DNA from: Pseudomonadota bacterium
GTDB taxonomy: Bacteria > Pseudomonadota > Gammaproteobacteria > Steroidobacterales > Woeseiaceae
NCBI GenBank assembly: GCA_022563255.1
Contig: JADFNS010000010.1
Location: forward strand, 1 to 64,000
Direction of reading: 5' to 3'
Length of the DNA: 64,000 bases
The translations under genes were made by a program, and so were the position numbers. This document shows, in pieces, positions 30,730 through 32,659 of the stretch (its first letter is position 1; each line of letters begins with the position of its first letter). Under the pieces are notes generated by a model, which searched no databases, was not told the DNA's origin, and saw only the letters and a list, made by a program, of their open reading frames with translations.

Positions 30730-31824
30730 TTAGTTTTTGCGGGTATGGAAATATGCCTGCTCTGAAATGCGGGAGTTCACCTCGGCTCTCTCAAGGTATT
30801 CGTAATACGCCTTGCCGATCTTCGCCGCGGCAGGGTCTCTTGCCATCAGCTCTGCAACAACCTCAGTCGTAATTTCCTTCAGGTGCCTGATGACTTGCTC
30901 CGGAAACGCCCGGACTTCGATCGACGGATTGTTCAGTAACTGCTGTAACGCAATTGCGTTGCCGTTGGTGTATTCCGCAGCCATGTCCGTCGTAATCGAC
31001 TGACATGTGATCTCGACAATCGCCTGTAAATCGGCCGGCAGTGAGTCCCACGCCGTTCGATTGATGATGCATTCAAGGCCCGGCCCCGGCTCCTGCCAAC
31101 CCGGGTAATAGTAATATTTTGCGGCTTTGTGCAAACCGATGGTGACGTCGTTGTACGGACCAACCCACTCGGTCGCATCTATCGCGCCGGTTTGCAACGA
31201 CGTGAATATTTCAGCGCCGGGCAAAATGACCGGCGTGCCTCCAGCGCGCCGCAATACTTCGCCGCCCATCCCCGGAATACGCATCTTCAGTCCCTTCAGG
31301 TCGTCAATGCTGTTGATTTCTTTGTTAAACCAACCGCCCATCTGTACGCCGGTATTCCCGCAGGGAAACGGCATCAGGTTGAACGGTTCGTAGAGTTCGC
31401 GCCATAACTCGAGACCGCCACCGTAGTAGAGCCAACCTTCCAGTTCCGCCCTGTTCAGACCGAAGGGCATCGCCGTGAAGAACTGGGCCGCGTCGACTTT
31501 GCCGCGGTGGTAATACGACGCACCGTGGCCCATTTCCACGGCGCCGCGACTGACGGCATCAAACACCTCAAACGCCGGGACCAGCTCGCCGCCGCCATAG
31601 ATCTTGATTTTCAGGCGACCAGCGGAGGCACGCTCGATACGCTCGGCGAGATTTTCAACCGCCATGCCCAGACCAGGAAATTTTGGTGGCCACGAAGTAA
31701 CGCAAGACCATGCGAAGGTTTGCACCGATTCGCCACCTTGTGCGGCGCAATCGGCTTGCGGTTTGGCGCAGCCAGCCAGACCTGTCGCAGCCGCAAGGCC
31801 GCCGACGAATTCTCTTCTTTTCAT
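30730..31824 (-). CDS. TRAP transporter substrate-binding protein (DctP/TakP type)
   Basis: A 364-residue periplasmic solute receptor. The N-terminus MKRREFVGG has a twin-arginine character and a lipobox LAGC with Cys19, so it is probably a Tat- or Sec-exported lipoprotein. Family blocks: MRIPGMGGEVLRRAGGTP, AIDATEWVGPYND and KYYYYPGWQEPG. These resemble the TakP subgroup that binds 2-oxo acids through a metal ion, so an organic oxo-acid or hydroxy-acid ligand is likely. The permease genes are about 6 kb away at 23052-24924. The gene is preceded by a 397 bp structured intergenic region. Confidence 0.9.
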   Translation of the reverse strand: MKRREFVGGLAAATGLAGCAKPQADCAAQGGESVQTFAWSCVTSWPPKFPGLGMAVENLAERIERASAGRLKIKIYGGGELVPAFEVFDAVSRGAVEMGHGASYYHRGKVDAAQFFTAMPFGLNRAELEGWLYYGGGLELWRELYEPFNLMPFPCGNTGVQMGGWFNKEINSIDDLKGLKMRIPGMGGEVLRRAGGTPVILPGAEIFTSLQTGAIDATEWVGPYNDVTIGLHKAAKYYYYPGWQEPGPGLECIINRTAWDSLPADLQAIVEITCQSITTDMAAEYTNGNAIALQQLLNNPSIEVRAFPEQVIRHLKEITTEVVAELMARDPAAAKIGKAYYEYLERAEVNSRISEQAYFHTRKN

Positions 31825-31992
31825 TTTGGACCCGCCACTTGTGATTGATCGTTAGTCTATGCGGTCGCTCAGGGCTTCTCAATGCCTGACCTTTCGGTAA
31901 CCTTCAGGAAAAGTGGGGTTAATATGTTGTATATTATCGCCACTTTAATTGCATTTAGTCGTCGTTTATTGTGGCTTTGCGCCACCTTTTCC

Positions 31993-32024
31993 GAAAAATG
32001 GGCCCCGACTGAACGTCGGGGCCC
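31993..32024 (-). terminator. intrinsic terminator facing dctP
   Basis: A perfect 10 bp stem (GGGCCCCGAC, 32000-32009, with 32015-32024) and a five-base loop. On the minus strand it is followed by ATTTTTC. On the plus strand no T-run follows, so it works for leftward transcription only. No protein gene lies immediately upstream of it on that strand. Confidence 0.75.
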
Positions 32025-32148
32025 TCCTTCCCTGGTCCGGTCGGATGGTTGGACCCCTGTCGCACCCTCCGTGGCGCTTGAGGGGGCGCTGCTGGTGAAC
32101 ACCTTCCCACCCACCGGTGCGATCAGTGTCACAAACAGTGCCATCCGA
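31993..32148 (-). ncRNA. candidate structured RNA or attenuator upstream of dctP
   Basis: Read on the minus strand, two perfectly complementary segments are nested in order: an 8 bp outer stem (32141-32148 with 32041-32048) and a 7 bp inner stem (32116-32122 with 32060-32066). The enclosed 49 bases can form further hairpins, for example GGTG/CACC (32094-32103). An intrinsic terminator follows 16 bases after the outer stem. This layout fits either a riboswitch/attenuator controlling dctP and the FAD oxidase, or a free-standing small RNA. I do not recognise it as 6S, SRP, tmRNA, RNase P, or a TPP, cobalamin, glycine or SAM riboswitch. Confidence 0.5.
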
Positions 32149-32221
32149 TGTAGCTATTCGTATTTGCCTGATGCATTAATAAAAGGCCAAAACACGGCGA
32201 ATCGGGACACCTGAGGCAAAA

Positions 32222-32659
32222 ATGATTGGACTACTGCAACGCGTCAACACAGCCAGCGTCAGCGTAGCCGGGAAGATTGTCGGTCAAATTGAACGGGGCT
32301 TGCTCGTATTCGTTGCCGTGCATCGAGACGACGAGGAGCGTGATATCGCACGGCTTGCGAAAAGAATTCTTGGCTACCGGGTATTTCCAGACGCTAAAGG
32401 CCGTATGAATCGCAGTCTTCTCGAGATTTCCGGCAGCTTGCTATTGGTACCTCAGTTCACCCTGACTGCCGATACAAAAAAGGGCACTCGGGCAAGCTTC
32501 ACCAAAGGCGCTGACCCTAAGAAGGCGTCGGCTTATTTCGATGGCCTGGTTGACGCTGCTCGCAGTCAGCTGAAAACGGTCGAAACCGGCCCTTTCGGCG
32601 CTGACATGCAAGTGAGCCTGGTGAACGACGGCCCGGTGACGTTCTGGCTTGAATCCTGA
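32222..32659 (+). CDS. dtd: D-aminoacyl-tRNA deacylase
   Basis: A 145-residue enzyme that hydrolyses D-amino acids (and mischarged glycine) from tRNA. The two active-site motifs of the family are present: LLVPQFTLTAD (usually SQFTL) near residues 77-87 and the C-terminal NDGPVTFWLES (the Gly-cisPro motif). Length is standard for the family. It is divergent from dctP across the structured intergenic region. Confidence 0.95.
   Translation: MIGLLQRVNTASVSVAGKIVGQIERGLLVFVAVHRDDEERDIARLAKRILGYRVFPDAKGRMNRSLLEISGSLLLVPQFTLTADTKKGTRASFTKGADPKKASAYFDGLVDAARSQLKTVETGPFGADMQVSLVNDGPVTFWLES

What the first reader, a model, noticed from the sequence alone, without database searches (positions are those of the whole stretch)
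31993..32148. Candidate structured RNA with its own terminator upstream of dctP
The 397 bp dctP-dtd gap has no credible protein gene, yet carries two nested perfect complementarities (32141-32148/32041-32048 and 32116-32122/32060-32066) around a branched interior, then a 10 bp terminator with a T-run on the minus strand only. A stem-organised sensor region followed by a terminator ahead of a transporter/oxidase operon is riboswitch-like; a free small RNA ending at that terminator is the alternative. It does not match a family I remember.
Basis: partly seen in the sequence, partly recalled or inferred. Interest (0 to 1): 0.7.

Follow-up and report, generated by a model that had tools for sequence, protein, structure and literature searches.

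The report
Two-site CsrA-binding small RNA candidate
Between two genes of a marine-sediment bacterium lies a conserved, folded small RNA that carries two copies of the landing site of the global regulator CsrA, so it probably soaks up or is governed by CsrA and is not a metabolite switch for the neighbouring transporter gene.

Summary
Relatives support another fold: a 12-bp helix (P1), two hairpins with ANGGAN hexaloops (CANGGANG, the CsrA/RsmE recognition site) and the terminator. In 48 selected loci 19 of 26 pairs have compensatory changes; 0 of 500 shuffles reach that. The RNA is matched in 59 of 73 genus genomes and 19 of other genera of its family (Woeseiaceae by record titles), and occurs in 4 genomes of a second family. 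dtd is its constant neighbour; dctP is not. dctP usually has its own promoter-like site below the terminator (57 of 70 regions), and other genes separate the two in four loci, so a dctP riboswitch is unlikely. The own genome encodes CsrA with L4 and R44. No Rfam family matches. Most likely: an independent sRNA that binds one CsrA dimer and antagonises it. Transcription, binding and antagonism are untested; only two sites, and lineages with one, weigh against.

The parts
31993..32155 (-). conserved RNA (extent of the model R1 match; 5' end not mapped)
   Evidence: 163 nt aligned
32106..32117 (-). helix P1, 5' strand (weakened in this genome by three mismatches)
32037..32048 (-). helix P1, 3' strand
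32062..32077 (-). hairpin 1: GCGCC-ACGGAG-GGUGC, ANGGAN hexaloop (CsrA-type site 1, CANGGANG at 32073-32066)
32026..32035 (-). hairpin 2: CC-AGGGAA-GG, ANGGAN hexaloop (CsrA-type site 2, CANGGANG at 32034-32027)
31994..32024 (-). intrinsic terminator: 10-bp stem-loop 32024-32000, then T-run
32152..32185 (-). conserved AT-rich block upstream of the RNA (TTTATTAATGCATC...TACGAATAGC), possible promoter or regulator site for the RNA and/or dtd; role not shown
   Evidence: alignment
31854..31882 (-). dctP promoter-like element TTGAGA-17-TAGACT, below the RNA terminator and 29 nt before the dctP start
30730..31824 (-). dctP (TRAP solute-binding protein), downstream neighbour, judged a separate transcription unit
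32222..32659 (+). dtd (D-aminoacyl-tRNA deacylase), divergent neighbour, the constant syntenic partner

Best explanation
It is an independently transcribed small RNA of about 150 nt, begun between dtd and the RNA on the strand opposite to dtd and ended by its own terminator. It presents two ANGGAN hexaloops 39 nt apart (37-41 nt in 45 of 55 two-site loci), one on each side of helix P1, which is about one helical turn long. One CsrA dimer is likely held on these two loops, so the RNA, when made, takes CsrA away from mRNAs like a minimal CsrB/RsmZ-type antagonist. Shown here by comparison: the fold, the two sites, the terminator, the synteny, a csrA gene in this genome. Inferred: transcription, CsrA binding, bridging by one dimer, and the antagonist role.
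For: Fold: searches (24 loci; 48 loci, chosen mostly for having two sites): 19 of 26 pairs with compensatory changes, 0 of 500 shuffles as high, slid controls at most 55.9% paired against 91.8%. P1 strands against re-dealt partners: 1 of 5000 permutations as high (12 loci of other genera), 0 of 5000 (43 loci of the genus). Sites: of the 25 loci found by BLASTN, 24 carry both CANGGANG sites; the one without (L029) was left out of alignment A1. In A1 the fixed letters of both copies are invariant while the N columns vary. Of 74 dtd- or dctP-linked model hits 55 have two or more sites, 16 one, 3 none (false hits L087 and L088 dropped). Loci fetched last, used for no model and not chosen for sites: 4 of 4 further genomes of other genera, and 4 of 4 of the second family, have two sites beside dtd. 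The window holds no other CANGGANG pair 22-45 nt apart on either strand. Of 9 family genomes searched, chosen from those with the RNA, 8 hold exactly one CCANGGANGG pair, each at this RNA, and 1 none; the reversed pattern occurs in none. CsrA of the own genome has L4 and R44; csrA was found in 56 of 73 genus genomes. Recognition of an ANGGAN hexaloop by RsmE, importance of L4 and R44, and dual-site bridging at 10-63 nt: passages of PMC7652899. Independence from dctP.
Against: Only two sites: the classical antagonists in the paper seen carry 9-25 GGA motifs, and sRNAs with one or two are said there to bind much less well (PMC11882849, passages). Sixteen of 74 loci keep one site and three none; some of these also lack the terminator (sequences). 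The reduced genomes G011 and G051 have decayed RNA but keep csrA. RNA detection does not track csrA detection over the 73 genus genomes (Fisher p 0.73), though many are incomplete MAGs. Unguided folds of six sequences give P1 in all six but both hexaloop hairpins in only two (L197 and the window segment); in L075 and L019 hairpin 1 closes to a four-base loop and site 2 is paired elsewhere, and in L008 and L194 the best fold opens both. No GacA-type upstream site was recognised, and gacA was not found beside uvrC in the two genomes read. The T-run is weak in several relatives. In this genome P1 has three mismatches and a competing 8-bp stem. No transcript data.
Confidence: 0.62

Rival explanations
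1. A base-pairing or otherwise acting sRNA that CsrA binds and protects (as PMC11882849 says of Spot42), so that CsrA is its partner rather than its target.
For: Two sites only, like the weaker CsrA-binding sRNAs named in PMC11882849 (passages). A further conserved 5' motif (GGCANNCUGG and its variants; sequences) is not explained by CsrA binding. One-site loci persist.
Against: No long conserved unpaired stretch stands out apart from the sites and the 5' motif; most of the loop between P1 and hairpin 1 varies. No targets were predicted here.
Confidence: 0.2
2. A CsrA-controlled leader (attenuator) of dctP: CsrA on site 2, next to the terminator, alters read-through into dctP.
For: dctP lies downstream on the same strand in most family loci fetched, and site 2 lies a few nt before the terminator stem.
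Against: dctP has its own promoter-like element (57 of 70 distinct upstream regions score at least 8 of 12, against 10% of mononucleotide shuffles). Genes lie between the two in L089, L090, L075 and L103. No dctP in the fetched stretch in 3 of 4 loci of the second family or in L104.
Confidence: 0.1
3. A metabolite riboswitch for the dctP-FAD oxidoreductase operon.
For: A structured region followed by a terminator upstream of a transporter gene.
Confidence: 0.03
4. A DNA element or chance conservation between two divergent promoters.
For: An AT-rich block beside dtd is also conserved.
Against: Compensatory changes in P1, hairpin 1 and the terminator.
Confidence: 0.03

Closest known systems
CsrB/CsrC and RsmX/Y/Z antagonist sRNAs (Csr/Rsm system)
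   Same: Intergenic RNA, ANGGAN sites in hairpin loops, own terminator, host with CsrA.
   Different: Two sites instead of many; a covarying architecture with a 12-bp P1 between the sites; fixed place beside dtd; no recognised GacA site; no Rfam match.
sRNAs with one or two GGA motifs that bind CsrA (McaS, GadY, Spot42)
   Same: About two sites in a short RNA.
   Different: In the passages seen McaS and GadY are called base-pairing and Spot42 an antisense sRNA (PMC7652899, PMC11882849); no pairing region is known here, and here the two sites are among the most conserved letters.
Pf1-Pf3 Csr sRNAs of Pseudoalteromonas fuliginea (PMC11882849, passages seen)
   Same: Marine gammaproteobacterium; intergenic RNAs recognised by GGA motifs, promoter and terminator.
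   Different: They carry 25, 21 and 9 GGA motifs; CsrA binding of Pf2 and Pf3 was shown by gel shift. Ours has two CANGGANG sites and is untested.

Membership tests
Csr/Rsm antagonist sRNA (CsrB/RsmZ kind) | ANGGAN sites in hairpin loops | tested here: met
   Two hexaloop hairpins in the comparative fold; hairpin 1 stem with compensatory changes, hairpin 2 stem invariant or nearly so; unguided folds show both in 2 of 6 sequences
Csr/Rsm antagonist sRNA (CsrB/RsmZ kind) | many sites (9 or more GGA in the examples seen) | tested here: not met
   Two CANGGANG sites; 3-8 GGA in all in the 25 loci counted; hence not filed as a member
Csr/Rsm antagonist sRNA (CsrB/RsmZ kind) | separate transcription unit with intrinsic terminator | tested here: inconclusive
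   Terminator stem paired in 97.5% of cells in the 48 loci of A4 and dctP has its own promoter-like site; the RNA's promoter is not identified and no transcript was seen
Csr/Rsm antagonist sRNA (CsrB/RsmZ kind) | host encodes CsrA with RNA-binding residues | tested here: met
   Own genome. csrA in 56 of 73 genus genomes
Csr/Rsm antagonist sRNA (CsrB/RsmZ kind) | GacA-dependent transcription | tested here: inconclusive
   No gacA in the uvrC stretches read for two genomes; no upstream site recognised by eye; gacA not searched elsewhere
Csr/Rsm antagonist sRNA (CsrB/RsmZ kind) | binds CsrA and relieves its targets | not testable with these tools
   needs gel shift and reporter assays
any Rfam 15 family | score at or above the family's gathering cut-off | tested here: not met
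   0 matches in the window; best match in 31820-32230 is 22.3 bits, on the plus strand, against a cut-off of 90; in 17 other loci only two tRNAs
riboswitch of dctP | cis position with the regulated gene in one transcript | tested here: not met
   (indirect; no transcript data)

The most novel reading that the evidence does not exclude
A new class of minimal, rigid CsrA trap: P1, about one helical turn long, fixes two hexaloops at the spacing of the two faces of one CsrA dimer. It would be the one tandem two-site CsrA element in most genomes of this widespread, nearly uncultured marine-sediment family, and be kept beside dtd across two families.
Probability: 0.35. Interest if true: 0.72.

Novelty: new variant of a known kind. 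Interest (0 to 1): 0.6.

Why it matters
Antagonist RNAs of CsrA usually lack sequence conservation and are recognised by repeated GGA motifs (PMC11882849, passage), which would pass over a two-site RNA. This one has a covariance model that finds it across genera, so CsrA control becomes testable in a widespread group of marine-sediment bacteria whose RNA regulation I found no paper on, and a one-dimer trap would be a simple object for structural work.

Tried and rejected
Rfam at the gathering score and down to E 10: only chance matches. Model hits dropped: L087 and L088 (G297, G265) have no dtd and no site. Ten weak R1 hits in families f4, f10, f12 and f15 (L198-L207) had no dtd in the fetched stretch. 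Six R2 hits in f8 and f10 (L208-L213) had no dtd and at most one site. None of 18 class-level R2 loci had dtd. All are treated as false or unrelated, though several carry ANGGAN pairs. Three of the 16 pattern hits (Rhodospira, Oscillibacter, Pseudomonas fluorescens; L132, L142, L143) have no dtd and reach at most 14.2 bits with R2: chance. Clusters of three or more sites: none in the own genome; 5 of 11 genomes had matches against 4 of 11 with a reversed-pattern match. gacA through uvrC: not found there. csrA absence as a natural experiment: no correlation. A first duplex test ended in a script error after printing and was replaced. Alignment A5 placed the second family's hairpins badly, and no model was built from it. 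dtd loci without any site: G051, G161, G279, G282, G149 of the family and G069, G074, G063, G071 of other families (in G279 one CANGGANG lies inside the dctP gene).

Selection to keep in mind: A4 and model R2 were built mostly from loci chosen for two sites, so site invariance in A4 is partly by choice. Figures free of that choice: 24 of 25, 4 of 4 (second family), 4 of 4 (further genera).

Literature: five searches on this question and one on Woeseiales transcriptomes. 'Woeseia' with 'CsrA' and 'Woeseiaceae' with 'small RNA' each gave one paper, seen only in the listing and judged unrelated by title. One search asked for two of five terms; none of its ten listed papers, of 10,582, holds JTB255. 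In the main text of PMC7451513 the find tool counts no CsrA, dctP or 'small RNA' (passages seen). So I know of no description in print, within that library and those searches only.

Full report
WHAT WAS CHECKED. No Rfam 15 family matches in the window, nor beyond chance in 31820-32230 down to E 10. The neighbours are dtd (TIGR00256) and dctP (PF03480, NF037995), followed by a DAO-type FAD oxidoreductase.

RELATIVES. BLASTN of the 191-nt stretch against 99 genomes, own included, gave hits with E below 0.001 only in the same genus. Twenty-five loci were taken: in 24 dtd was found beside the RNA; in the other (L030), cut by a contig end, only dctP was. A covariance model (R1) matched 62 of 73 genus genomes at E 1 or better, the weakest probably chance. 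A second model (R2) matched 59 of 73 genus genomes at E 0.001, 19 genomes of other genera of the family and 3 of a second family f2 (genus and family rows counted). All 59 genus loci were fetched: 58 show dtd, and L030 shows dctP. All 19 loci of other genera show dtd, and 16 of the 19 have two sites. A fourth f2 genome came from a weak R1 hit.

GENOMES WITHOUT A MATCH. Of the 14 genus genomes without an R2 match, seven gave no dtd match (G002, G012, G048, G100, G004, G108, G026). One is cut by a contig end just after the P1 5' strand (G018), and three keep P1 and/or one site (G044, G056, G022). G040 keeps one site. Two reduced genomes have decayed copies (G011; G051). In other genera of the family, G209 has two sites and a terminator though the genome scan missed it; G149, G161, G279 and G282 show no site between dtd and dctP. 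Four genomes of other families (G069, G074, G063, G071) show none at dtd.

NAMES. Of 16 pattern hits in named genomes, 8 are titled Woeseiaceae and 5 broadly (Gammaproteobacteria or Proteobacteria MAGs); these 13 have contig lengths equal to those of G-handle contigs of the genus. The other 3 are chance. The window's own record was not named; its genus is Woeseiaceae by these kin. That G132 is Woeseia oceani is a guess from its size (recalled).

STRUCTURE. A different fold does: helix P1 (window 32106-32117 with 32037-32048), hairpin 1 (32062-32077), hairpin 2 (32026-32035) and the terminator. On 24 loci, P1 and the hairpins pair in 94.3% of cells and 9 of 17 pairs have changes on both sides, 0 of 500 shuffles as high. 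On 48 loci the full fold pairs in 91.8% of cells with 19 of 26 pairs compensated, 0 of 500. P1 strands fit their own partner better than re-dealt partners: 1 of 5000 permutations as high for 12 loci of other genera, 0 of 5000 for 43 genus loci. In the second family P1 has an unrelated sequence (GCGAAGCATGTC with GACATGCTTCGC in L194). Unguided folds of six sequences form P1 in all six. L197 forms P1, two six-pair ANGGAN hairpins and the terminator, and the window segment without its 5' end forms P1, both hairpins and the terminator. The other four (L075, L008, L019, L194) pair parts of the sites otherwise in the best fold.

TWO CsrA-TYPE SITES. Both hairpin loops read A-N-G-G-A-N closed by C-G, that is CANGGANG. 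In A1 the fixed letters of both copies are invariant while the N columns vary. 24 of the first 25 loci have both. Over 76 model hits, two false ones aside, 55 of 74 have two or more sites, 16 have one and 3 none. Loci used for no model and not chosen for sites all have two: 4 of 4 further genomes of other genera and 4 of 4 of f2. Spacing between sites is 37-41 nt in 45 of 55 two-site loci and 39 nt in the window, which holds no other pair 22-45 nt apart. Genome-wide, a CCANGGANGG pair occurs once in 8 of 9 family genomes searched (chosen from those with the RNA), each time at this RNA, and not in the ninth (G185); the reversed pattern occurs in none. In the review seen, NMR structures show RsmE bound to a hairpin with an ANGGAN hexaloop, L4 and R44 are critical residues of CsrA, and one dimer can bridge sites 10-63 nt apart (PMC7652899, passages). 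The own genome's CsrA has L4 and R44.

INDEPENDENCE FROM dctP. Upstream of dctP, 57 of 70 distinct 90-nt regions hold a promoter-like pair scoring at least 8 of 12 against 10% of mononucleotide shuffles, and 24 of 70 score at least 9 against 1.8%. The common form is TTGGCA or TTGAGT, 17 nt, then TAGACT or TACACT, about 30 nt before the start; in the window this lies below the RNA's terminator. An IS1595 transposase gene (L089), an FG-GAP gene (L090), an FkbM methyltransferase gene on the other strand (L075) and a PIN gene on the other strand (L103) lie between RNA and dctP. In f2, dctP is absent from the 1-1.5 kb fetched downstream in 3 of 4 genomes, while dtd is beside the RNA in all four.

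MECHANISM. Shown by comparison: a conserved, covarying RNA with two CsrA-type hexaloops and a terminator, kept beside dtd. Inferred: it is transcribed alone, binds one CsrA dimer across P1, and by doing so frees CsrA targets. The alternative that CsrA serves the RNA as a partner cannot be excluded, and a conserved 5' motif (GGCANNCUGG and variants) remains unexplained. Against: only two sites, lineages with one site and no terminator, decay in reduced genomes that keep csrA, no correlation with csrA detection (p 0.73), mixed unguided folds, and no promoter or GacA site identified.

VERDICT. A new conserved RNA, working most likely like a minimal Csr/Rsm antagonist, but not filed as a member because the many-site feature is not met and CsrA binding is untested.

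Noticed in passing
G458 contig C61:44594-44764 and other contigs: Tandem arrays of CCANGGANGG hairpins in another genome of the class (12 forward and 2 reverse matches of the two-site pattern); they look like multi-site CsrA-binding arrays or intergenic repeats.
   Followed up: no
L146 and L150 (1501 onwards): Two-hairpin elements with ANGGAN loops (in L146 GGCAGC-AUGGAU-GCUGCC, then CACAGGGAUGUG) in other families of the class, without dtd nearby.
   Followed up: partly
L158 and L159 (around 1501-1651): Pairs of CANGGANG sites close to tRNA genes in two other genomes.
   Followed up: no
window 32152-32185 (minus strand): Near-palindromic block TTTATTAATGCATC conserved upstream of the RNA and dtd in most of the first 25 loci, changed in some (L020, L026) and not seen in the second family.
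   Followed up: partly
window 32124-32132 (minus strand) and A4 columns 1-10: Conserved 5' motif GGCANNCUGG and variants (here GUGACACUG) before P1 in two families; unexplained.
   Followed up: partly
L096, L098, L108, L119, L120: Lineages of the genus that keep P1-like strands, and in L098, L119 and L120 one site, but lack site 2 and the terminator.
   Followed up: partly
genus genomes: Several genomes carry a second, diverged CsrA homologue (mostly about 29-41 bits).
   Followed up: no
L127 (G011) and L171 (G051): Two reduced genomes (1.4-1.5 Mb) with decayed RNA at the dtd-dctP locus although csrA is kept.
   Followed up: partly
L218 (G243 contig C152): A second contig end of G243 carries the 3' part of the same RNA followed by dctP, probably the same locus split or duplicated in the assembly.
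   Followed up: partly
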